Shown here in pieces: positions 918 through 16,702 of a stretch of 23,554 nt of DNA. The notes beneath the pieces were generated by a model, which worked only from the letters and a program-made list of their open reading frames with translations, did not search any database and was not told the origin of the DNA. Each line of letters begins with the position of its first letter. The first letter of the stretch is position 1. The stretch is from a virus. The stretch spans positions 1 to 23,554 of the IMG/VR virus record IMGVR_UViG_3300027800_000179, one strand, 5' to 3'. The translations under genes and the position numbers were made by a program.

Positions 918-1781
918 ATGGCGATGGAACATGTTGGATCGGCCACGTTGCCCGTGGCTGACATTATCCTGAGTGATCGTTTGCGGCAGGTCGATGAGGC
1001 GCATGCCGCCTTGCTGGCCGAGAACATGCGGCAGACCGGATGCCTGCGGACCCCGATTGAGGTCCGTCAGATCAAAACCAAAACATCCCTTACCCATACC
1101 CTGATTGCCGGAGCACACCGTATCCGGGCGGCGCAACTGCTTGGCTGGGTCGAGATCGAGGCGGAAATCTACCAAGGGTCTGACGATGAGGCCCGGCTGT
1201 GGGAGATCGACGAAAACCTGATCCGTCATGAACTGAACCCGTTGGACCGGGCGGTCTTCCTTGCCGAGCGGAAGCAGGTTTACGAGCGGATGCACCCCGA
1301 TACGGCTGGTGGTGTGGCGGGTGGGAAAGCCCGGCAAGGATCAGCAACGGACATCATGTCCTTTGCTAAGGACACGGCAGAGCGGGTTGGCCTGACCGAT
1401 CGCAGCATCCGGCGCGCGGTATTCATTGCGCAGAAATTGTCCCCCGATGTCCGGGCATTGCTGCCGGGAATGGCATGCGCACAGAAGCAATCGGAATTGC
1501 TGGCGCTGGCCAAACTGGGACACAGCGACCAGCGGCAAGTGCTGGACCTGTTGCGTGACCCTGAGGCGAAGGTCAAAGGGGTTGGGGCGGCGCTTGATTT
1601 GCTGAAGGGCGTCAAGGACGACGCAGGACAGGTGGACAAGGGCTTTACCGATCTGGTCACCAAATGGGGGCGGGCGACGCCTCAGGATCGGGCGGCATTC
1701 CTGCGTCATCTGTGGGCGCATCAGAGCGATGACACCCTGCGCCGGTTTGTCATGGGGTTAGGGCAAGAGGAGGCCGCGTGA
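918..1781 (+). CDS. ParB/Srx-fold DNA-binding protein of the early operon
   Basis: A 287-residue protein. Residues about 10-100 form a ParB N-terminal domain: LPVADIILSDRLRQ, then the GAHRIRAAQLLGW box (the ParB GxxRxxA motif, here GAHRIRA), then DENLIRHELNPLDRA. A helix-turn-helix around GLTDRSIRRAVFIAQKL follows. The C-terminus is helical and not recognised. ParB-domain proteins bind DNA and some bind or hydrolyse CTP; no parA is adjacent, so plasmid-style partition is unlikely. The gene sits in the early operon two codons after ner, with GGAGG ten bases before the ATG. Mu lacks it; similar genes occur at this place in alphaproteobacterial Mu-like phages, where the role is unknown to me. 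Confidence 0.8.
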   Translation: MAMEHVGSATLPVADIILSDRLRQVDEAHAALLAENMRQTGCLRTPIEVRQIKTKTSLTHTLIAGAHRIRAAQLLGWVEIEAEIYQGSDDEARLWEIDENLIRHELNPLDRAVFLAERKQVYERMHPDTAGGVAGGKARQGSATDIMSFAKDTAERVGLTDRSIRRAVFIAQKLSPDVRALLPGMACAQKQSELLALAKLGHSDQRQVLDLLRDPEAKVKGVGAALDLLKGVKDDAGQVDKGFTDLVTKWGRATPQDRAAFLRHLWAHQSDDTLRRFVMGLGQEEAA

Positions 1782-7709: not shown

Positions 7710-8135
7710 ATGACACCTGACCGACGCGCCATGCTGGCAAAGGTCCACATCGCCAAGAAAGCCCTGTCTCTGGACGAGGAAACCTACCGGGCGGTGATCA
7801 GTCGCATGAGCAAGGGGAAGGCCACCAGCGCCAGTACTCTGTCTGACACCGGCTTGAACGACCTTTTACAGGAGTTCAAGCGGCTGGGCTGGCAAGCCCA
7901 AAAAGCCGCCCCCCGCACGGCGGCGAAAGACCCGCTGGCGGGCAAGGTCCGTGCCCTGTGGATTGCGCTGGCCGAGGCGGGGGTGGTGCGGGATCGGTCC
8001 GAGGCCGCCTTGCGCGGATATGTCCAGCGGATGACCGGCACCAGCGATCTGCGCTTTTGCGACGCCGGTCAAAAAGGCCGACTGATTGAAAGCCTGAAGC
8101 AATGGGCCGCCCGTGCAGGGGGTGGCACGCCATGA
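7710..8135 (+). CDS. gemA: GemA / Mu gp16 family protein (DUF1018)
   Basis: A 141-residue protein with the gp16/GemA signature: MTPDRRAMLAKVHIAKKALSL, then DEETYRAVISRMS, the linker LNDLLQEFKRLGW, and after a Pro/Ala spacer the C-terminal repeat-like domain VRALWIALAEAGVVRDRSEAALRGYVQRMTG. In Mu, GemA is linked to modulation of host gene expression and supercoiling. The start at 7710 begins with the family N-terminus; a longer frame from 7599 would overlap the previous gene. The stop overlaps the next ATG (ATGA). Confidence 0.85.
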   Translation: MTPDRRAMLAKVHIAKKALSLDEETYRAVISRMSKGKATSASTLSDTGLNDLLQEFKRLGWQAQKAAPRTAAKDPLAGKVRALWIALAEAGVVRDRSEAALRGYVQRMTGTSDLRFCDAGQKGRLIESLKQWAARAGGGTP

Positions 8136-8515
8136 CCCTGCTCCCCGGCATATTGGCAGAGATTGCCGAGTGCGTCGGCACCGACGCCGCGCTGGCTCTG
8201 GCCCGTATCGCCGGGGGGCGGGCTGTCTACATCCCTGCGCCTCACAACTTGACAAGCAGGCACTGGCTGGTCAAGGCTCTGGGGATGGCGCAAGCCGTTG
8301 CCGTCGCGACCATCTTCGGCGGCGGTGAAATCCGGGTACCGCTGGGGCCGACCGGCTCGCAGGCCAGCCAGCGGGCGATGATCGACAGCCTGATTGCTCA
8401 GGGGCTGTCGACCTCGCAGGTTGCCAGCCGGGCCGGGGTGACCGAGCGCACCGTCGAGCGCCGCCGGGCGGCCTTGCGCGATGCCGCCAATGACAATCAG
8501 CTGAGCCTGTTCTGA
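8132..8515 (+). CDS. Mor/C-family transcription activator
   Basis: A 127-residue protein with the Mor/C layout: an N-terminal helical part, the GGRAVYIP strand (28-35) that forms the dimer in Mor, then a C-terminal helix-turn-helix (about 83-115: SLIAQGLSTSQVASRAGVTE and following arginines). In Mu, Mor activates the middle promoter and C the four late promoters, binding a dyad about 44 bp upstream of the start. This gene lies directly before the lysis genes, the position of Mu C, and just before the dyad at 8523-8538, which recurs at 15544-15559. I infer that it is the late activator. Translation is coupled to gemA by ATGA. Confidence 0.75.
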   Translation: MTLLPGILAEIAECVGTDAALALARIAGGRAVYIPAPHNLTSRHWLVKALGMAQAVAVATIFGGGEIRVPLGPTGSQASQRAMIDSLIAQGLSTSQVASRAGVTERTVERRRAALRDAANDNQLSLF

Positions 8516-8520
8516 TCCTG

Positions 8521-8568
8521 CCCCCGACAGGTGTCGGGTTTATGGAAAAAAGCCTCCGTTGCTACCGT
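8521..8568 (+). promoter_or_regulatory. Late promoter with activator dyad, copy 1 (Plys-like)
   Basis: CCCGACA-GG-TGTCGGG (8523-8538) is followed one base later by TTATGG (8540-8545), and a -10-like TACCGT lies at 8563-8568, 32.5 bp from the dyad centre. The 25 bases 8521-8545 match 15542-15566 at 22 positions, and the -10-like element has the same offset there. No -35 hexamer is evident, as expected for an activator-dependent promoter. The predicted start near 8575 gives a leader of about 19 bases with GGAG before the endolysin ATG. Confidence 0.7.
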
Positions 8569-8587
8569 CACGGAAACGGTAACGGAG
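8546..8587 (-). terminator. Bulged hairpin with U-tract on the minus strand
   Basis: CTCCGTT-gct-ACCGT (8554-8568) pairs with ACGGT-AACGGAG (8576-8587): 12 bp with a 3-base bulge. On the plus strand six A (8546-8551) precede it, so the minus strand shows the stem, then GC, then TTTTTT. It reads as an intrinsic terminator for leftward transcription. It overlaps the late promoter -10, so the inverted repeat may alternatively be a DNA-level element. Confidence 0.45.
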
Positions 8588-8593
8588 CGCCCG

Positions 8594-9193
8594 ATGACCC
8601 TCATCGCCCCCCCTGATTCTCTTTTCCGGCAAGCCCATGACTTTTTGCTGGCCCACGAAGGCGGCTATGTCGCCGATCCCCGCGACCCCGGCGGCGCGAC
8701 CAATCATGGCGTCTCGCTGGCGTGGTTGCGCAAGGCGGGCCTGCTGGATATCGACCATGATGGCCATCCCGATGGCGATATCGATCTGGATGGCGACATT
8801 GACCCCGACGACATCCGCGTCCTGCAGCGCGACGATACGGCCCGGCTGTACCGCCATCACTGGTGGGACCGCTACAGCTATGGGGTGTTGCCGCCGGTGA
8901 TCGCGATCAAGGTGTTTGATCTGGCGGTCAACATGGGGGCACCGCAGGCACACCGCCTGTTGCAGCGCGCCTGCACCGCCTGTGGTCAGCCGGTCAACGA
9001 GGACGGGGTGCTGGGCCCCCAGACCCGCACTGCCGTGTGGGCGGTGCGCGATGATCGGCTGCTGACCGCCCTGTGTGAGCAGGCCGAATCGTTCTACCGC
9101 CGTCTGGTCGAAGCCTCCCCGGCGCGCGAGGTGTTCCTGAAGGGCTGGCTTCGGCGGGCCAAGGCTCGTCCGGTTGTGGTGGAGGGTCGGTGA
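8594..9193 (+). CDS. GH108-family endolysin with EF-hand-like insert
   Basis: A 199-residue protein of the glycosyl hydrolase 108 / phage lysozyme group. The catalytic Glu is E22 in AHEGGYVADPRDPGGATNHG. The C-terminal part carries the peptidoglycan-binding-like fold with IKVFDLAVNMGAPQAHRLLQ and DGVLGPQTRTAV. Between them, residues 52-74 hold a DxDxDG-rich insert; 62-73 fits a calcium EF-hand loop (D62, D64, D66, G67, I69, D73). No signal peptide is visible, so it would need the adjacent holin for release. A GTG start at 8531 is rejected because it would place the late operator dyad and promoter in the coding region; ATG 8594 has GGAG six bases upstream. Confidence 0.88.
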   Translation: MTLIAPPDSLFRQAHDFLLAHEGGYVADPRDPGGATNHGVSLAWLRKAGLLDIDHDGHPDGDIDLDGDIDPDDIRVLQRDDTARLYRHHWWDRYSYGVLPPVIAIKVFDLAVNMGAPQAHRLLQRACTACGQPVNEDGVLGPQTRTAVWAVRDDRLLTALCEQAESFYRRLVEASPAREVFLKGWLRRAKARPVVVEGR

Positions 9194-9726
9194 TGGACCC
9201 GATTTCTGCCGCCCTTGGCGTGGCCTCGCTGGCCGCCCCCTACATTGGCAAGTGGCTGTTCGGGGATGACGGCGAAAAGGTCGCCCAGCAGGTGGTGGCG
9301 GTCGCGCAAAAGGTGACCGCCACCGACAGCCCCGCCGCCGCCCAGCAGGCGCTGCAAGCCAATCCGGAGCTGGTGGCCCAGCTGCAAATGCAGCTTGCCA
9401 CCCTGAATGCCGACCTCGAACGGGCATACCTGCAGGATCGCCAAAGCGCCCGCCAACGGGATGTCGAGCTGGCCAGATCGGGGCGCAGCAACGTCCGCGC
9501 TGACCTGATGGTGGCGGGGGTGACGCTCGGGCTGATCGCCTGCATCGGGGTGCTGGCGTTCTACCGGTCTCAAGTCCCCGGCGAGGTGGTCGGTATTCTC
9601 TCCACCGTGGCGGGGATTTTCGGGGCCTGCCTGAAAGACGCCTTTGCCTTCGAGTTCGGCAGTAGCCGGTCCTCAAAGGAAAAGGACGCCCTGATTGCCC
9701 AGAGCATCGGGGGTGGCCGTGGCTGA
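9193..9726 (+). CDS. Three-TM phage holin (GTA-holin-like)
   Basis: A 177-residue membrane protein. A short hydrophobic N-terminus (ALGVASLAAPYIGKWLF), an amphipathic helical middle (residues 40-95, Ala/Gln-rich, ending RDVELARSGRSNVRAD), then two transmembrane segments at about 105-123 and 131-147. This resembles the 'holin of 3TMs' family known from gene transfer agents and alphaproteobacterial phages. Placed immediately after the endolysin, it probably forms the membrane lesion that releases it. GGAGGG lies six bases before ATG 9193; GTG 9190 is an alternative. Confidence 0.75.
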   Translation: MDPISAALGVASLAAPYIGKWLFGDDGEKVAQQVVAVAQKVTATDSPAAAQQALQANPELVAQLQMQLATLNADLERAYLQDRQSARQRDVELARSGRSNVRADLMVAGVTLGLIACIGVLAFYRSQVPGEVVGILSTVAGIFGACLKDAFAFEFGSSRSSKEKDALIAQSIGGGRG

Positions 9727-9943
9727 CAGCATCGACAGCGCCCAGATGGCCGACCAGACCCACCGCGAGGCTCTGCTGTCCCGCCGCAAGCGCAGGCGCT
9801 CGCTGGCAGGGAGCAGCCCGGCCCGCTGCACCGGCTGCGGTGATGCCATCCCGCCAGAGCGGCGGCAGGCGGTCCCCGGCACGCCCCTGTGCGCCGACTG
9901 TGCCACCGACCACGAGCGCCGGGCACGCCAGCAGCGGCGATAG
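9719..9943 (+). CDS. TraR/DksA-type C4 zinc finger protein
   Basis: A 74-residue basic protein beginning VADSIDSAQ, the usual N-terminus of phage TraR/DksA homologues, with a C4 finger C37-x2-C40-x17-C58-x2-C61 (CTGCGDAIPPERR). Such proteins bind the RNA polymerase secondary channel or DNA; the short length means it lacks the DksA coiled coil. GTG 9719 overlaps the holin stop and gives the family start; no better ATG exists upstream. It is common near the lysis genes of Mu-like phages. Confidence 0.8.
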   Translation: MADSIDSAQMADQTHREALLSRRKRRRSLAGSSPARCTGCGDAIPPERRQAVPGTPLCADCATDHERRARQQRR

Positions 9944-9952
9944 GGGGGGACC

Positions 9953-10309
9953 ATGGATTTCGCACTGAGCGACATCACGGATGCGGCTGGCCCGCTGACC
10001 GCACTGGCCGGTCTGGTGGCAACGGCCATCCTGTGGCGTCTCAAGGGCGAGTTTGCCAGCAAGGCCGACTTGCAGGAGACGCGGGATCGCCTGGATACGG
10101 TGGAGGCCGAACTTGAACGGGTCTGTACGCGCCTCGAAATGCTGCCCGACCACGAAGACCTGTCGGACGTGCGCGAGCGGCTGGCGTCGATGGAAGGCGC
10201 GATCAAGGTCGCCTCGGAACAGGTCGAGGGCTTGCGGCAGGTGATGGTCCGCCTTGAACGCCCGTTGAACCAGTTGATTGACCACCACATGAACCGGGGG
10301 CGGGGATGA
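9953..10309 (+). CDS. DUF2730 protein, Mu gp25-like membrane-anchored coiled coil
   Basis: A 118-residue protein with one N-terminal hydrophobic segment (about 12-30, GPLTALAGLVATAILWRL) followed by a long charged coiled coil (ADLQETRDRLDTVEAELERV to the C-terminus). This is the layout of the DUF2730 family, which includes Mu gp25, found between the lysis genes and terminase. A spanin-like or membrane role has been guessed for such proteins; none is demonstrated here. Its stop overlaps the next start by four bases (ATGA). Confidence 0.75.
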   Translation: MDFALSDITDAAGPLTALAGLVATAILWRLKGEFASKADLQETRDRLDTVEAELERVCTRLEMLPDHEDLSDVRERLASMEGAIKVASEQVEGLRQVMVRLERPLNQLIDHHMNRGRG

Positions 10310-10605
10310 GCTTTGAAAAGGATTGGGTTGCCTCGCGTCGCCTGTTCATTTTGCGCCTGCTGGTCGAGGTCGGTTTCGAGGCCAACGAAGGGGTGATCTA
10401 CAGGGCCACCGAACGCGGCGGTTTTGCGCGGGATACCCGCGATGACCTGCGGCAGGATCTGGACCATCTGGTCAGGACCGGCTGCCTGACCCAGACGTGG
10501 CTGAATGGCTCGCTGCGGGTGGTGAAACTGACCGAACGCGGCGAAGACGCCGCCCATGGGCGGGTGGCTGTTGAGGGGGTCGAGCGTACCCGCTGGGACC
10601 GTTAA
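10306..10605 (+). CDS. Winged-helix phage protein, Mu gp26-like (VpaChn25_0724 family)
   Basis: A 99-residue protein with an ArsR-like winged-helix pattern: SRRLFILRLLVEVGFEANEG (helix), RDTRDDLRQDLDHLVRTG (recognition region), LNGSLRVVKLTERGEDAAHG (wing). Members of this family always sit just upstream of the Mu-like small terminase. DNA binding is likely; the role is unknown. Translation is coupled to the preceding gene by ATGA. Confidence 0.75.
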   Translation: MSFEKDWVASRRLFILRLLVEVGFEANEGVIYRATERGGFARDTRDDLRQDLDHLVRTGCLTQTWLNGSLRVVKLTERGEDAAHGRVAVEGVERTRWDR

Positions 10606-10606
10606 G

Positions 10607-11164
10607 ATGGCCCGCCCGTCGAAAATCGACCGCCTGCCGCCTGCGGTGCGGGAAGAAATTGGCCGCCTGCGCCGGGATGGCCTGACCATTGACGACATCC
10701 TCGCCCGTTTGCGCGGGATGGTGCCGGACAGCCAGCAGCCCTCACGGGCCGGGCTGGGGCGGCACATCCAGAAGGTCGATGTGCTGGCCGGGCGGATCAA
10801 GGCCGCCGAAGCGATGGCCGACCGTTTGATGGGCGATATGGGCAATGGTACCGAAGTAAAACTGGCACGGATGAACGCGCTCATGCTCAGCAACGCTCTC
10901 TTTGACCTGCAATCGGCGGTCGAAGAGGGCGAGGCCGTGGCCTTGGAACCAAAGGACGCGAAGGTCCTTTCCGAGGTCCTGCGCAACGTGGCAATGGCGC
11001 AAAAGGCCAACGCCGACTACGTGCAAAAGGCCAATGAAATCCGTGCAGAAGAACGCCTTGTCCTGGAGGCCGAGATGAAAGCGAAGCTGGACGCCATGCC
11101 CACCAGGAAAGGCGTCACGCCCGAAACCCTGGCCGAAATCCGCGCCGCCCTCGGCATCATTTAA
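10607..11164 (+). CDS. Terminase small subunit, Mu gp27 / DUF3486 family
   Basis: A 185-residue protein. The N-terminal MARPSKIDRLPPAVREEIGR is the DUF3486 hallmark, followed by a helix-turn-helix (DGLTIDDILARLRG, SRAGLGRHIQK) that would recognise phage DNA, a central helical region and a C-terminal coiled coil. In Mu-like phages it is the small terminase partner that directs packaging of the transposed genome. It lies directly upstream of the large subunit. ATG 10607 gives the family N-terminus; the longer frame from 10556 is inside the previous gene. Confidence 0.88.
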   Translation: MARPSKIDRLPPAVREEIGRLRRDGLTIDDILARLRGMVPDSQQPSRAGLGRHIQKVDVLAGRIKAAEAMADRLMGDMGNGTEVKLARMNALMLSNALFDLQSAVEEGEAVALEPKDAKVLSEVLRNVAMAQKANADYVQKANEIRAEERLVLEAEMKAKLDAMPTRKGVTPETLAEIRAALGII

Positions 11165-11175
11165 AGGGGGCATGA

Positions 11176-12612
11176 ATGGGCAATGCCAGGATCATCCCCG
11201 CCGACCCGGACGCCATTTTCCTGCCCTTTCAGGGCCGCTGGATCAAGGACAGAAGCCGCCTTAAGGCAATGGAAAAGAGCCGTCAGATTGGCCTGTCGTG
11301 GTCAACCGCCTATGCCTGCGTCGAGCGGACGGCACAGGCGGGGCAGAAATGGGACCAGTGGGTATCCTCGCGTGACGAGATGCAGGCCCGGCTGTTCATT
11401 GAGGATTGCAAGCTGTGGGCCGGGGTGATGAACCTTGCCGCGCAGGATCTGGGCGAGGTGGTACTGGATCAAAAGACCGGCCAGACCGCGCATGTCCTGA
11501 AGTTCGCCAACGGACGGCGCATCCATTCGATGTCGTCGAACCCTGATGCGCAGGCAGGCAAGCGCGGTGGCCGCGTGCTCGATGAGTTCGCCCTACACCC
11601 TGACCCGCGCAAGCTGTGGGCCATCGCCTATCCGGGGATCACCTGGGGCGGGTCGATGGAAATCATCTCCACCCATCGCGGCAGCGGCAACTTCTTCAAC
11701 GAGCTGATCCGCGAATGCCGCGAAAACGGCAACCCCAAGGGGATCAGCCTGCACCGGGTGACGTTGCAGGATGCCCTTGATCAAGGCTTCCTGTTCAAGC
11801 TGCAACAGATGTTGCCCGCCGACGACGAGCGACAGGCGATGGACGAAGCCGCCTATTACGACTTCATCCGCGCCGGGTGTGCCGACGAGGAAAGCTTTCA
11901 GCAGGAATACGAGTGCAACCCTGCCGACGATAATGCCGCCTTTCTGGAATACGACCTGATCGCCTCGGCGGAATATGCCGCTGCCGACCGCTGGCAAGAG
12001 CCGCAAGGAGGCCGTCTGTTTGCCGGGGTGGACATTGGCCGCAAGAAAGACCTGACTGTCCTGTGGGTGGTCGAACTGCTGGGCGACGTCCTTTATACCC
12101 GTCATGTCGAGTGCATGGAAAAAATGCGCAAATCGGCGCAAGAGGCACTCCTTTACCCGTGGTTTGAGCGCTGCGAGCGGGTGGCCATCGACGCCACCGG
12201 GCTGGGCATTGGCTGGGTTGATGATGCCCAGGACAAATACGGCGGGCACCGCGTGGAAGGGGTGACCTTTACCCCGGTGACCAAGCAGGCGCTGGCCTAT
12301 CCGGTGCGGTCGAAAATGGAAGACCGCCGCATCCGCATCCCCCATGACAAACACATCCGGGCTGACCTGCGGCAGGTGCAAAAACAGACCACGGCGGCAG
12401 GCACGGTGCGCTTCACCGCCGAGCGCACCCCCGACGGTCACGCTGACCGCTTCTGGGCGCTGGCGCTGGCGATCCACGCCGCCAGCCAGCCGGTCCAGGA
12501 CTACGACTACACCAGTGCCAGGGCTGAAGCCCGGCAGGATAACCCCCATTACAACGACGATCCCGACGCCGACACCAGCGGCGGACGGGGCTGGCAGCGC
12601 GGAGCATGGTAA
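11176..12612 (+). CDS. Terminase large subunit, Mu gp28-like
   Basis: A 478-residue packaging motor. ATPase half: Walker A variant SRQIGLSWS (R36 to S41) and Walker B GGRVLDEF with D136-E137. Nuclease half, RNase H fold: VDIGRKKDLTVLWVVE (D286), VAIDATGLG (D339) and DGHADRFWALALA (D424) supply the metal-binding acids. The protein cuts host DNA next to the integrated phage and drives headful packaging. GGGGG precedes the start; the stop overlaps the portal start (TAATG). Confidence 0.93.
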   Translation: MGNARIIPADPDAIFLPFQGRWIKDRSRLKAMEKSRQIGLSWSTAYACVERTAQAGQKWDQWVSSRDEMQARLFIEDCKLWAGVMNLAAQDLGEVVLDQKTGQTAHVLKFANGRRIHSMSSNPDAQAGKRGGRVLDEFALHPDPRKLWAIAYPGITWGGSMEIISTHRGSGNFFNELIRECRENGNPKGISLHRVTLQDALDQGFLFKLQQMLPADDERQAMDEAAYYDFIRAGCADEESFQQEYECNPADDNAAFLEYDLIASAEYAAADRWQEPQGGRLFAGVDIGRKKDLTVLWVVELLGDVLYTRHVECMEKMRKSAQEALLYPWFERCERVAIDATGLGIGWVDDAQDKYGGHRVEGVTFTPVTKQALAYPVRSKMEDRRIRIPHDKHIRADLRQVQKQTTAAGTVRFTAERTPDGHADRFWALALAIHAASQPVQDYDYTSARAEARQDNPHYNDDPDADTSGGRGWQRGAW

Positions 12613-14141
12613 TGGCCCTCCTCGATCAATACGGCAATCCCATCCGGCGCGAGGCGTTGCGCGGGGAGCACGGCGGCCCGACCGTGACCGGCGTGCGGTC
12701 GATCCTGTCCGATCACCCGGCGCAGGGGCTGACCCCGCACCGGCTGGCCCGGTTGCTGCGGGCGGCCGAGAGCGGCGATGCGGTGGCCTATCTGGAACTG
12801 GCCGAGGAGATGGAGGAAAAAGACCTCCATTACCGCTCGGTGCTGTCCACCCGCAAGATGCAGGTGGCCTGTTTGCCGGTGACGGTCGAGGCGGCGGGGG
12901 ATGATGCCCAGTCGGTGGCCGATGCCGATCTGATCCGCACCTGGCTGGCCCGCGATACCTTGGCGCTGGAGCTGTATGATATCCTTGATGCGGTCGGCAA
13001 AGGCTTCTCGGCAACCGAAATCCTGTGGGACACCGCCGATGGTCTGTGGCTGCCCGCCCGGCTGGAATGGCGCGATCCTCGGTGGTTTGAATTCGACCGC
13101 GTTGACGGGCGCACCCTGCGCCTGCGCGGGCTGGGGGCAGGCGAAGACCTCGCCCCGTGGAAATGGATCCTGCACAACCATCAAACCAAGTCCGGCCTGC
13201 CGATTCGCGGCGGTCTGGCCCGTGCTGTGGCGTGGAGCTACCTGTTCAAAAACTACGACATCAAAAGCTGGGTCTCGTTCCTGGATGGCTTTGGCCAGCC
13301 GCTGCGCGTGGGCCGCTTTGGCCCCGGTGCCACCGCAGAGCAAAAGGACATCCTGCTGACGGCGGTGCGCAATATTGCCGCCGATGCCGCCGCCATCATC
13401 CCGGAAGGGATGGCCATTGACTTCATTGAGGCCAGGATCAGCGGCAACCTCGACCTGTTCGAGCGCATGGCGGCATGGCTGGATCGGCAAACCTCGAAAG
13501 CGGTGCTGGGCCAGACCGGCACCACCGACACCGGCCAGCATGTCGGCACCGCCAATGCCCACGAGAACGTCCGTGACGACATCGAAGCCTGGGACGCCAT
13601 GCAACTGGCGGCAACGCTGAACCGCGATTTGATCAGGCCGGTCATCGACCTGAACCGGGGCCCACGCAAAAAGTATCCCCGGCTGGTGATCCGGCGAGCG
13701 GACAGCGAAGACACCGCCGGACTGGTGACGATGGTGGCAACGCTGGTGGATCGCGGCTTGCAGGTCGAACAATCGGTGCTGCGCGACCGGCTGGGGCTGC
13801 CGGACCCGGACAAAGGCGCGATGCTGCTGCATCCGCTGGGGGCTGCGCCGATGGCCCAAAAGGCGGCGCAGACATCGTTGGTCGCTGCCCACGCCCAGCA
13901 GGACCAGCAGGCACCCGACCCCATCGACACACTGATTGCCGACGAACTGGCCGAGTGGGAACCGCTGGTCGATCCCTTGCTGGCCCCGCTGCGGGCGTTG
14001 CTGGAGGACTGCGCCACGCTGGAAGAATTCCAGCGCCGCCTGCCCGAGCTGGTCGCCCGGCAAGATGCCACCGCGCTGGCCGAACCGCTGGCACAGGCCC
14101 TGTTCGCCGCCCGCCTGAGTGGGGAAACCGCCGATGGCTGA
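12612..14141 (+). CDS. Portal protein, Mu gp29-like (DUF935)
   Basis: A 509-residue protein. Family marks include LLDQYGNPI at the start, EEMEEKDLHYRSVLSTRKMQV, the AVGKGFSATEILWD core, PRWFEFD, LPIRGGLARAVAWSYLFKNY, WVSFLDGFGQPLRVGRF and the C-terminal DLNRGPRKKYPRL. It forms the dodecameric portal at one capsid vertex that binds terminase and the head-tail connector. ATG 12612 has GGAG seven bases upstream; ATG 12606 is too close to that site. Its end overlaps the next gene by eight bases. Confidence 0.93.
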   Translation: MALLDQYGNPIRREALRGEHGGPTVTGVRSILSDHPAQGLTPHRLARLLRAAESGDAVAYLELAEEMEEKDLHYRSVLSTRKMQVACLPVTVEAAGDDAQSVADADLIRTWLARDTLALELYDILDAVGKGFSATEILWDTADGLWLPARLEWRDPRWFEFDRVDGRTLRLRGLGAGEDLAPWKWILHNHQTKSGLPIRGGLARAVAWSYLFKNYDIKSWVSFLDGFGQPLRVGRFGPGATAEQKDILLTAVRNIAADAAAIIPEGMAIDFIEARISGNLDLFERMAAWLDRQTSKAVLGQTGTTDTGQHVGTANAHENVRDDIEAWDAMQLAATLNRDLIRPVIDLNRGPRKKYPRLVIRRADSEDTAGLVTMVATLVDRGLQVEQSVLRDRLGLPDPDKGAMLLHPLGAAPMAQKAAQTSLVAAHAQQDQQAPDPIDTLIADELAEWEPLVDPLLAPLRALLEDCATLEEFQRRLPELVARQDATALAEPLAQALFAARLSGETADG

Positions 14142-14985
14142 GATTGACGCGCTCAAGGCCGTGCCGCCCGAGGACGCGCTGGCCTATTTCAAGGCCAAGG
14201 GCTTTGCCCTCACTCCCTCAGTAGCGTGGCAGGACCTGTGGCAGGAGGCCCACGCCACCGCCTTTACCGTTGCCCGCTCGGCGGGCTTTGACATTCTGGC
14301 CGATGTGCATGGAGCCTTGCAAAAGGCACTGGCCGAGGGCCAGACCCTGGCGCAGTTCAAGCAAGCCCTGACCCCGCTGCTGCAAGCGAAAGGTTGGTGG
14401 GGGCAGGATGCCGATGGCGCGCAGCTTGGATCACCGCGTCGGCTGAAGACCATCTATGACACTAACCTGCGCATCGCCCGCGCCGCTGGCCGCTGGTCGC
14501 AAATCCAGCGCCACAAGGCCCGGCGACCATGGTTGCGCTATGTGGCGATTGCCGATGGCCGCACCCGCCCCGATCACCTGCGCTGGCACGGGCTGGTGCT
14601 GCCGGTCGATGATCCGTTCTGGCAGACCCATTACCCGCCCAACGGCTGGGGCTGCCGGTGCTCGACCACGCAACTGAGCGACCGCGACCTTGCCCGCTAT
14701 GGCTATCAGGTCAGCCCCTCGCCGGAGATCGAGACGCGTCCATGGACCAATCCGCGCACCGGCGAAGTAGTCGATGTGCCCAAGGGCATCGACCCCGGCT
14801 GGGGCTATAACGTCGGAACGGCGTCACTGGATGGTCATGCCGCCCGCGCGCTGAACATCAAGCTGAGTGCCGCCCCGTCTGATCTGGCGGCGGCAGCCAG
14901 TGCCGAATTCGTGGTGCCCGCCACCGAAAAGCAGGTGGGCGACACGTCTTCCCGCCGCCAGACCCTGATCGGAAGGGTAAAGTGA
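14134..14985 (+). CDS. Phage head morphogenesis protein, Mu gp30 (F) / SPP1 gp7 family
   Basis: A 283-residue minor head protein. The N-terminal helical part (PEDALAYFKAKGF) is followed by the Phage_Mu_F domain with TIYDTNLRIARAAGRW, IADGRTRPDHLRWHG, PFWQTHYPPNGWGCRC and the short tail SDRDLARYGY. The His/Cys-rich motif is characteristic. Members associate with the portal and enter the head during assembly. ATG 14134 matches the family start; an upstream GTG at 14119 adds five residues. In Mu the next gene is G, but here a gene-poor gap follows. Confidence 0.9.
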   Translation: MAEIDALKAVPPEDALAYFKAKGFALTPSVAWQDLWQEAHATAFTVARSAGFDILADVHGALQKALAEGQTLAQFKQALTPLLQAKGWWGQDADGAQLGSPRRLKTIYDTNLRIARAAGRWSQIQRHKARRPWLRYVAIADGRTRPDHLRWHGLVLPVDDPFWQTHYPPNGWGCRCSTTQLSDRDLARYGYQVSPSPEIETRPWTNPRTGEVVDVPKGIDPGWGYNVGTASLDGHAARALNIKLSAAPSDLAAAASAEFVVPATEKQVGDTSSRRQTLIGRVK

Positions 14986-15056
14986 TCGTGGAGTTCAATC
15001 GCTCTGTGAAGGTTGCCAGTCAGGGCGTCTACGAACTCATTGATGGTCGTTTGTGA
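14982..15056 (+). CDS. Possible 24-residue ORF or gene remnant
   Basis: GTG 14982 overlaps the stop of the previous gene (GTGA) and is preceded by GGAAGGG at good spacing. It reads VIVEFNRSVKVASQGVYELI and ends at TGA 15054-15056. The sequence looks protein-like, and the frame continues open after the TGA for about 35 codons (IDGRASLPRPTLL), so it may be the start of a decayed gene. It is too short to assign. Confidence 0.3.
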   Translation: MIVEFNRSVKVASQGVYELIDGRL

Positions 15057-15288
15057 TGGGGAATGGTGATTGATGGGAGGGCGTCACTTCCTCGTCCGAC
15101 GCTGCTTGCGCAACCCCGTGCCGGCAAAACGTCATTTCCGGTCGTCTCACCGATCACCTGAGATCAATCCTATCCCCCTTTTTGCTCGCCCTCAAGTCCG
15201 GGCCTCGCCTGCGGGCCTCGCATTGGGTTTAAGAGGCCGGTAAAAGGCGCTAAAAGGGGGCTGTGTGCGTCGCTCGACCGATCCTGAC

Positions 15289-15335
15289 CGTGAGGGCGTT
15301 TCCGTTCTCTCTCGATCACTCCAAACGCCCTCACG
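15289..15335 (+). repeat. 13-bp perfect inverted repeat in the gap
   Basis: CGTGAGGGCGTTT (15289-15301) and AAACGCCCTCACG (15323-15335) with a 21-base spacer. The downstream side (TCTTGTGTTT) is only mildly U-rich, so it could be a weak terminator for the preceding transcript, or a protein-binding site. It is the longest perfect stem I noticed in the window. Confidence 0.6.
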
Positions 15336-15361
15336 TCTTGTGTTTCAGCAAATACGTCGTC

Positions 15362-15453
15362 GCAGATGTGTCCATCTGCTCGGGATTTGCTCTGGCGCCG
15401 CCGTTAAAGGGGCTTTAAACGGGGGCCGGTCTGCGGGATGCTGGTCCGGCCCC
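15362..15453 (+). other. Three consecutive hairpins
   Basis: GCAGATG-TGTC-CATCTGC (15362-15379, perfect). CGTTAAAG-GGG-CTTTAAACG (15402-15421, one base unpaired). GGGGCCGG (15422-15429) with CCGGCCCC (15446-15453, 16-base loop). With the inverted repeat at 15289 they make about 165 bases of densely paired sequence upstream of the late promoter. Structured RNA or remnant; no known RNA family is recognised. Confidence 0.45.
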
Positions 15454-15541
15454 ATCCGCCCCGCCGGGTTCGGCCCGCCGCATGGGTGCCCTGATTTCCG
15501 CGATATCCGCCCCCTCGCCCCTTCGCCCCTTCGCCACCATC

Positions 15542-15589
15542 CCCCCGACCGGGGTCGGGCTTATGGGACCGCTCCGTGCCGCTTACAGT
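15542..15589 (+). promoter_or_regulatory. Late promoter with activator dyad, copy 2 (PI-like)
   Basis: CCCGACC-GG-GGTCGGG (15544-15559), one base, then TTATGG (15561-15566), and a -10-like TACAGT (15584-15589, 4/6) at 32.5 bp from the dyad centre, exactly as in the copy at 8521. The predicted start near 15596 gives a leader of about 21 bases with GGAGAGG before GTG 15617. Mu has a late promoter in front of gene I; this one is at the same place. Confidence 0.7.
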
Positions 15590-15616
15590 GCCCTCATCAC
15601 GACGGAGAGGGACGCA

Positions 15617-16702
15617 GTGAGCACCACCCCCACCACACAGCAGACATCCTGCCACACCATCGACCTGACCCCAGAGCAGGGGCGCGCCCCGGAGTGGGTG
15701 CATCTGCTGCCGCTGGGGGTTTTCCGGGGCCGTGATGGCCGGGGCCCGTACCGGGTTGCCGACACGGCTGCCGCGACGGCGGTGCTGACCGCCACGCAAG
15801 CCCACCTTGCCGGGGCCGCGATGGTGCTGGACTACAACCATCAGGCCTGGCTGGCGGCCCGCACTGGCGGCCCGGCCCCGGCGGCGGGGTGGGTGCGCGA
15901 GCTTGCCGTCCGTGACGATGGCCTGTGGGGCCGTATCGACTGGCTACCCGAGGCCGATCAGGCCATCGCCAAAAAAGAATATCGCTATCTCTCCCCGGTC
16001 TTTGATCACACCCCGCAAGGCGACGTGATCCGCCTGCGCTGTGCCGCCCTGACCAATCTGCCGAACCTTGAACTGACCGCGCTGGCCTCGCAACAGGCCA
16101 GCCCTCTGGAGGTGCCCGCGATGCCTGCTGACCCTGTTCCGCCCCCCGCGCCCCCCGCGCCCCCCGCCGTCACCGGAGGCAACGCCGATCCGCTGGCCGC
16201 CGTGCGGACGGCCTTTGGCCTGCCTGCCGATGCTGACGGTGCGGCGATTGCCGCACACGCCCAGTCTGTGGCCCAGCTTTTGGCCCAAAAACAGACCCCG
16301 CCCCCGGTGACCCCCGACCCGGCGCAGTACGTGCCGATGGCCGCCTTCACCGCCCTCCAGAATCAGGTCGCCGGTGTGCTGGCGCAGACTGCCGCCCACG
16401 CTGCCCAGACGGCAATCACCGAGGCCACCGCCGCAGGCAAGTTGCCGCCCGCCCTGACCGGCTGGGCCGCCGACTATGCCGCCAAGGATCTGGCAGGCTT
16501 TCAGGCGTGGGTGGCCGCAGCTCCGGTACTGGTGGCGGCCCATGCCCAGAGTGCGGGTGCGGGTGGGTCATCTGCCGCGCCGCCTGCCGGTGCGCCGGTG
16601 CTGACCCCGGTGCTGACCGCTGAACAGACCGCCGTCTGTGCCCAGCTGGGCCTGTCTGCCGAAGCCTTCAGCCAGCACATCCAGCAGGAGACCGGCAAGT
16701 GA
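15617..16702 (+). CDS. I: Prohead protease, Mu gpI-like, with nested scaffold
   Basis: A 361-residue protein, the same length I recall for Mu I. The protease part has the Mu_I pattern: WVHLLPLGVFRGRDGRGPY, AAMVLDYNHQAWLA, GPAPAAGWVRELAVRDDGLW, KKEYRYLSPVF and RCAALTNLPNLELTAL. After a Pro/Ala linker (about 170-185) comes a Gln/Ala-rich helical scaffold part. The protease matures the prohead and removes the scaffold. GTG 15617 has GGAGAGG upstream. The longer frame from 15482 is rejected because it would translate through the late promoter. Its end overlaps the next gene by four bases. Confidence 0.9.
   Translation: MSTTPTTQQTSCHTIDLTPEQGRAPEWVHLLPLGVFRGRDGRGPYRVADTAAATAVLTATQAHLAGAAMVLDYNHQAWLAARTGGPAPAAGWVRELAVRDDGLWGRIDWLPEADQAIAKKEYRYLSPVFDHTPQGDVIRLRCAALTNLPNLELTALASQQASPLEVPAMPADPVPPPAPPAPPAVTGGNADPLAAVRTAFGLPADADGAAIAAHAQSVAQLLAQKQTPPPVTPDPAQYVPMAAFTALQNQVAGVLAQTAAHAAQTAITEATAAGKLPPALTGWAADYAAKDLAGFQAWVAAAPVLVAAHAQSAGAGGSSAAPPAGAPVLTPVLTAEQTAVCAQLGLSAEAFSQHIQQETGK
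16121..16702 (+). CDS. Z: Internal-start scaffold protein, Mu gpZ-like (nested in I)
   Basis: An in-frame ATG at 16121 is preceded by GGAGGTG (16108-16114) at six-base spacing, the best ribosome-binding site in this gene and better than that of the full-length start. It would give a 193-residue protein beginning MPADPVPPP and containing the Ala/Gln-rich helical region (AHAQSVAQLLAQKQ, ALQNQVAGVLAQTAAHAAQ). In Mu the scaffold Z is made from an internal start in I and shares its C-terminus. The site is seen in sequence; its use is inference. Confidence 0.65.
   Translation: MPADPVPPPAPPAPPAVTGGNADPLAAVRTAFGLPADADGAAIAAHAQSVAQLLAQKQTPPPVTPDPAQYVPMAAFTALQNQVAGVLAQTAAHAAQTAITEATAAGKLPPALTGWAADYAAKDLAGFQAWVAAAPVLVAAHAQSAGAGGSSAAPPAGAPVLTPVLTAEQTAVCAQLGLSAEAFSQHIQQETGK
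16141..16167 (+). repeat. Three tandem 9-bp repeats coding a Pro/Ala linker
   Basis: GCCCCCCGC is repeated three times without interruption, coding PPA units (PPAPPAPPA) between the protease and scaffold parts. Slippage here would change linker length in steps of three residues without breaking the frame. Confidence 0.8.

What the first reader, a model, noticed from the sequence alone, without database searches (positions are those of the whole stretch)
8521..15589. Two matching late promoters with a shared GC-rich activator dyad
Bases 8521-8545 and 15542-15566 agree at 22 of 25 positions, although they lie 7021 bases apart in unrelated surroundings. Each holds a CCCGAC.GG.GTCGGG-type dyad, one base, and TTATGG. 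At exactly the same offset (32.5 bp from the dyad centre) each has TAC(C/A)GT as a -10-like hexamer, followed by a leader of about 20 bases with a GGAG site and a start codon. The two genes are the endolysin and the protease, the genes served by Plys and PI in Mu. A dyad about 44 bp upstream of the start is the Mor/C binding geometry. The Mu sites are AT-rich, so this would be a different recognition sequence and a separate late regulon code.
Basis: partly seen in the sequence, partly recalled or inferred. Interest (0 to 1): 0.85.

Follow-up and report, generated by a model that had tools for sequence, protein, structure and literature searches.

The report
Late-gene switches of a Mu-like prophage
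The two matching DNA blocks are very probably the on-switches for the lysis and head genes of a Mu-like bacterial virus, bound by the activator protein encoded just upstream; relatives carry the same layout with other letters, and those letters follow one amino acid of the activator.

Summary
The interpretation largely holds. Both sites look like late promoters activated by the Mor/C-family protein encoded at 8132-8515. A diverged relative (L003 contig, activator 63% identical) keeps the block at both places although its endolysin gene is non-homologous. In 38 Mu-like phages with both genes, the region after mor and the region before the protease shared a phage-specific element in 23; most are dyads with core GACA-nn-TGTC. 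Aligned on the dyad alone, 31/40 sites have A and T of a -10 hexamer at the window's offset (shuffle maximum 9); held-out sites 19/30 (about 1 expected). The half-site base at -5.5 tracks one recognition-helix residue: Glu with C 9/9 (others 1/40), aromatic or His with T 14/14, Arg with G 14/16; written down as a prediction before new genomes were fetched. The window (RTVER, CCCGACA) fits. Some relatives carry three or four copies, reaching tail genes. No binding or transcript was measured. Verdict: a real Mor/C-type late regulon with a GC-rich operator unlike Mu's, shared by a phage family.

The parts
8132..8515 (+). Mor/C-family late activator gene (127 aa); recognition-helix motif TERTVERRR with E109
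   Evidence: PF08765 above cut-off, phrog_836; hhalign to Mu C E=5e-7; predicted HTH helices 94-101 and 105-121, mean pLDDT 88.9
8523..8538 (+). Operator dyad 1, CCCGACAGGTGTCGGG (Plys-like site)
   Evidence: 0 mismatches to consensus; counterpart after mor in L003 contig
8540..8545 (+). TTATGG, -35-region flank; its first T is the family-conserved T at +9.5; 17 bp from the -10
   Evidence: (T in 29/40 sites at that offset)
8563..8568 (+). -10-like hexamer TACCGT
   Evidence: fixed offset 32.5 bp from dyad centre, shared across the family
8575..8575 (+). predicted transcription start (inferred; not mapped)
   Evidence: 7 nt after the -10; in relatives the ATG of apparently leaderless genes sits at this offset
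8584..8587 (+). Shine-Dalgarno GGAG for endolysin
   Evidence: leader ACGGAGnnGCCCGATG also in L003 contig
8594..9193 (+). endolysin (glycosyl hydrolase 108)
   Evidence: PF05838, phrog_315
15544..15559 (+). Operator dyad 2, CCCGACCGGGGTCGGG (PI-like site)
   Evidence: identical block in L003
15561..15566 (+). TTATGG, -35-region flank
15584..15589 (+). -10-like hexamer TACAGT
15596..15598 (+). predicted +1 (inferred); in-frame ATC where many relatives have the ATG of an apparently leaderless protease mRNA
   Evidence: sequence
15604..15607 (+). Shine-Dalgarno-like GGAG before GTG 15617
15617..16702 (+). head maturation protease (Mu gene I homologue)
   Evidence: PF10123, phrog_328

Best explanation
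Both blocks are activator-dependent late promoters of a Mu-like prophage. A dimer of the Mor/C-family protein encoded at 8132-8515 binds the CCCGAC-nnnn-GTCGGG dyad, centred about 44 bp upstream of the start, takes the place of a good -35 element, and recruits or activates host RNA polymerase at a poor -10 (TACCGT, TACAGT). This switches on the lysis/packaging operon and the head operon together. Operator specificity is set largely by the recognition helix; E109 probably reads the cytosine at -5.5 in each half-site. Shown from sequence: anatomy, conservation, fixed geometry, residue-base covariation. Inferred: binding, activation, start sites, the direct E109-C contact.
For: Unique 22/25 repeat. 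Block kept at both sites in the diverged L003 contig, where the endolysin is swapped for an unrelated M15-type peptidase. Shared phage-specific element after mor and before the protease: 23 of 38 phages beat at least 97% of random windows in the same phage, 19 beat all. A at +33.5 and T at +37.5 in 31/40 dyad-aligned sites, shuffle maximum 9; held-out sites 19/30. Recognition residue vs base: E-C 9/9 vs 1/40 otherwise, Fisher 4.9e-9; prediction written before the new genomes were fetched, held-out 5/5 vs 1/20, p=1.1e-4. Operator nearly confined to the prophages: two sites each in G127, G015, G1241; three per prophage in G550 and three in one G489 prophage. Four exact or near-exact copies in RR1-B and three in POA1180, before lysis, head, tail or baseplate genes. 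In Mu, Mor binds a 16-bp dyad centred at -43.5 and C binds related dyads at four late promoters (PMC4390567; PMC4287176).
Against: No experiment. Fifteen of 38 phages gave no significant shared element in the regions compared, and four E-type activators had no recognisable dyad after mor (L184, L223, L227, L230). The training dyads were delimited by eye; L226 and L231 in the test set have only one intact half-site and were read by eye. The tree is poorly resolved: only 2 well-supported independent E/non-E contrasts (5 on the best tree), the supported ones in the expected direction. Two R-type proteins (L148, L163) go with T, not G.
Confidence: 0.9

Rival explanations
1. The GC-rich dyads are intrinsic terminators that end the mor and upstream head operons, next to promoters that do not depend on them.
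For: GC-rich hairpin followed by TTTAT at the first site, right after the mor stop; dyad 1 RNA folds better than shuffles (z -2.1). In RR1-B the shared dyad is followed by ATTTTCTTTTT at two sites.
Against: Neither window site passes the terminator scan for lack of a T-run. A fixed 32.5-bp spacing to the -10 is not expected of a terminator. In RR1-B the 21-bp dyad is exact at 26072 while the T-tract is lost. Some family sites are poor hairpins (L169, z +0.4). Covariation with the activator helix is unexplained.
Confidence: 0.05
2. The dyads are operators of another protein (the repressor or the CII-like regulator), not of the Mor-like protein.
For: No binding experiment; other regulators are encoded at 607-915 and 1894-2349.
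Against: The half-site base tracks the Mor recognition-helix residue across 49 phages; sites lie at late-type genes; geometry matches Mor/C at Mu promoters.
Confidence: 0.04
3. A chance or recently duplicated repeat without function.
For: Only two copies in the window.
Against: Absent from 30 shuffles; flanks unrelated; both copies kept in a diverged relative; same layout in many phages.
Confidence: 0.01

Closest known systems
Phage Mu late promoters Plys, PI, PP, Pmom activated by C
   Same: Mor/C-family activator, dyad upstream of a poor -10, the same two genes (endolysin, protease I); some relatives carry three or four copies, as Mu does
   Different: GC-rich CCCGAC-nnnn-GTCGGG dyad instead of Mu's AT-rich element; dyad-to-minus-10 spacing fixed at 32.5 bp; no separate middle activator seen in the window
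Phage Mu middle promoter Pm activated by Mor
   Same: 16-bp dyad; centre at -43.5 in Mu, about -44.5 inferred here
   Different: Mu: 5-bp repeats with a 6-bp spacer, drives the middle operon; here 6-bp arms with a 4-bp spacer, drives late genes directly
Ochrobactrum phage POA1180 gp51 and Rhizobium phage RR1-B RHYG_00019 (annotated late transcriptional activators)
   Same: activator 34-36% identical to the window's; shared dyads after mor, before the protease and before tail genes
   Different: half-sites CCTGACA and CCGGAAC; no promoter or operator is mentioned in the POA1180 paper (PMC5492332)

Membership tests
[quoted passage not shown]
   PF08765 28.3 vs 24.9 bits; phrog_836 E=2.6e-22; hhalign to Mu C E=5e-7
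[quoted passage not shown]
   predicted monomer has a C-terminal HTH; Foldseek lists Mu C (9l0x) and Mor (1rr7, 9l0y) but with E above 1
Mor/C-activated promoter | dyad centred near -43.5 in place of a -35 hexamer | tested here: met
   centre 32.5 bp before the -10, about -44.5 from the inferred start; no sigma-70 consensus promoter found
Mor/C-activated promoter | bound by the activator and dependent on it | not testable with these tools
   needs DNase I footprint or EMSA and run-off transcription
Mu late regulon | several copies serving lysis, head and tail/mom genes | tested here: met
   lysis and head sites in the window; three or four copies including tail genes in some relatives; a third site in the window was not found, and it ends in the tape measure
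Mu late regulon | Mu's own AT-rich C operator sequence | tested here: not met
   sequence differs: CCCGAC-nnnn-GTCGGG against the Mu Plys and PI regions
Intrinsic terminator | GC stem followed by a T-run | tested here: not met
   neither dyad is listed by the terminator scan

The most novel reading that the evidence does not exclude
Mor/C activators of alphaproteobacterial transposable phages follow a readable recognition code: one residue of the recognition helix (R-T/S-V-X-R) sets the third base of the half-site CCnGACA (Glu-C, Arg-G, aromatic or His-T), so the late regulon of an unstudied phage can be read from its activator sequence.
Probability: 0.6. Interest if true: 0.72.

Novelty: new variant of a known kind. 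Interest (0 to 1): 0.62.

Why it matters
Late transcription in Mu-like phages is worked out almost only in Mu. A common operator class with fixed geometry and a residue-to-base rule would let late promoters be annotated in many transposable prophages from sequence alone, and gives single-substitution tests of how Mor/C proteins read DNA. It may also explain why such phages would not trigger each other's late genes: operators diverge in step with activators.

Tried and rejected
Searching viral contigs with the window activator alone found no relatives, and its 8-member alignment was too diverse for that search; its use in the genome search worked. A third site in the window: none better than shuffles. 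Terminator and sigma-70 promoter scans found neither at the two sites. PDB sequence search with the activator profile gave only a repeat protein, and Foldseek gave no significant match, so the fold was left inconclusive. Plasmid records hold no relative of the activator. Papers: no description of operators outside Mu was found in the held library; that library lacks most subscription papers.

Full report
WHAT IS THERE. The window is a 23.5-kb virus record holding the left and middle part of a Mu-like prophage: repressor-like gene, ParB-like protein, Mu-type transposase A and B, GemA, a Mor/C-family activator (8132-8515), endolysin (8594), terminase, portal, protein F, protease I (15617), major head protein, tail sheath and tube, ending inside a tape-measure gene. 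The two blocks are as reported: 22/25 identical, the only direct pair that good, not reached in 30 shuffles. The -10-like hexamers lie at the same offset.

CONSERVATION IN A DIVERGED RELATIVE. An exact pattern scan of public virus contigs gave one other record, L003, whose protease is about 65% identical. It has CCCCCGACCGGGGTCGGGCTTATGG before its protease with TAAAGT at the same offset. Asking for the rest of that contig gave a second copy, CCCGACAGGGGTCGGGCTTATTG, right after its activator gene, with CAAACT at +32.5. Its activator is 63% identical to the window's and has the same recognition helix VTERTVERRRAAL. The gene downstream is an M15-type peptidase with no similarity to the window's endolysin: the switch was kept while the gene was replaced.

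FAMILY-WIDE LAYOUT. I built an HMM of Mor/C proteins and one of the protease over viral and bacterial loci. In 38 phages with both genes, the best ungapped match between the region after mor and the region before the protease was compared with random windows of the same phage: 23 beat at least 97% and 19 beat all. Most shared elements are dyads with core GACA-nn-TGTC but with phage-specific outer bases, for example CCCTGACAGCTGTCAGGG (L095), CCCGGACACCTGTCCGGG (L094), CATGGTGACAGGTGTCACCATG (L157). L149, L150 and L151 have the window's half-site CCCGACA.

FIXED GEOMETRY. Forty sites were aligned on the dyad centre alone. Conserved columns appear at +9.5 (T), +33.5 (A) and +37.5 (T); A and T together in 31/40, against at most 9 in 2000 shuffles searched over 40 positions. 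Most of the rest are shifted by one base. In 30 further sites located by the dyad only, 19 have both letters (about 1.2 expected from base composition). This is the -10 of a promoter at one spacing from the dyad, as for Mor (16-bp element centred at -43.5, PMC4390567) and C (related dyads at four late promoters, PMC4287176) in Mu. Related sequences are counted in these figures, so they are not independent trials.

RECOGNITION RESIDUE AND BASE. In the first 24 phages, the fourth residue of the motif R-T/S-V/A/I-X-R was Glu only where the half-site reads CC[C]GACA. I wrote the prediction down and then fetched about 70 new activator loci. Result: Glu with C in 5/5 new cases (three with a full dyad, two with one intact half-site read by eye), C otherwise in 1/20 (Gln, L205). 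Over all 49: Glu-C 9/9 against 1/40 others, aromatic or His with T 14/14, Arg with G 14/16. On a tree that leaves the helix out, the Glu-C state falls in about four separate places, but support is low and only two contrasts are on well-supported branches. AlphaFold puts E109 in helix 105-121, the second helix of the HTH. Glu-C and Arg-G are common direct contacts in protein-DNA recognition (general knowledge), so direct readout is plausible; it is not shown.

REGULON SIZE. Genome-wide, CCCGACAnnTGTCGGG with at most one mismatch is found almost only at the prophages: exactly the two expected sites in G127, G015 and G1241, two plus one stray in G149, three per prophage in G550. The G550 third site, about 23 kb downstream of mor, precedes a tail sheath gene. 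POA1180 has three exact copies and RR1-B four (lysis, protease, tape measure, baseplate; the last with one loop change). The window has only the two, and it ends in the tape measure.

ALTERNATIVES. Terminators: no T-run, fixed -10 spacing, and loss of the T-tract with an exact dyad at one RR1-B site argue against. Another regulator: covariation with the Mor helix argues against. Chance: refuted by conservation.

WHAT IT IS. A Mor/C-activated late regulon with a GC-rich operator. It works like Mu's C-dependent late promoters and belongs to that kind by activator family, gene targets and geometry; it differs in operator sequence and, as far as the window shows, in having one activator instead of the Mor-then-C cascade. 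The 'separate code' is a family of related codes. No measurement of transcription or binding exists here.

Noticed in passing
L154, L157, L169, L185, L198, L200, L201, L206, L207, L237 and others, pre-protease sites; L148 and L154 post-mor sites: In 16 of 70 dyad sites an ATG (ORF of 60 codons or more) sits 43-46 bases from the dyad centre, the predicted +1, with no room for a Shine-Dalgarno: late mRNAs look leaderless.
   Followed up: partly
window 15596-15616; L003:5414-5440: At that same position the window and L003 have an in-frame ATC followed by a few open codons before the GTG start of the protease; possibly a relic of a leaderless start or a non-standard start codon.
   Followed up: no
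L189, L191, L193: These prophages carry two Mor-like genes in tandem, possibly a middle/late pair as in Mu, but without the GACA-nn-TGTC dyad directly after either.
   Followed up: no
L055, L029, L041, L064, L046, L023, L028 upstream of the protease: Phages of another type show AT-rich dyads of the form TTAAA-n4-TTTAA or AAAACGTTTT before the protease, in some repeated elsewhere; possibly Mu-like Mor/C operators.
   Followed up: no
L005, L012 just before the protease ATG: Perfect palindrome GGCGCCGATCATCGGCGCC abutting the ATG and overlapping the likely -10.
   Followed up: no
window 1343-1367: Near-perfect 25-bp palindrome AGCAACGGACATCATGTCCTTTGCT inside the ParB-like gene.
   Followed up: no
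window 1-23554: Only one Mor/C-family gene is found, so the two-step Mor-then-C cascade of Mu seems reduced to one activator.
   Followed up: partly
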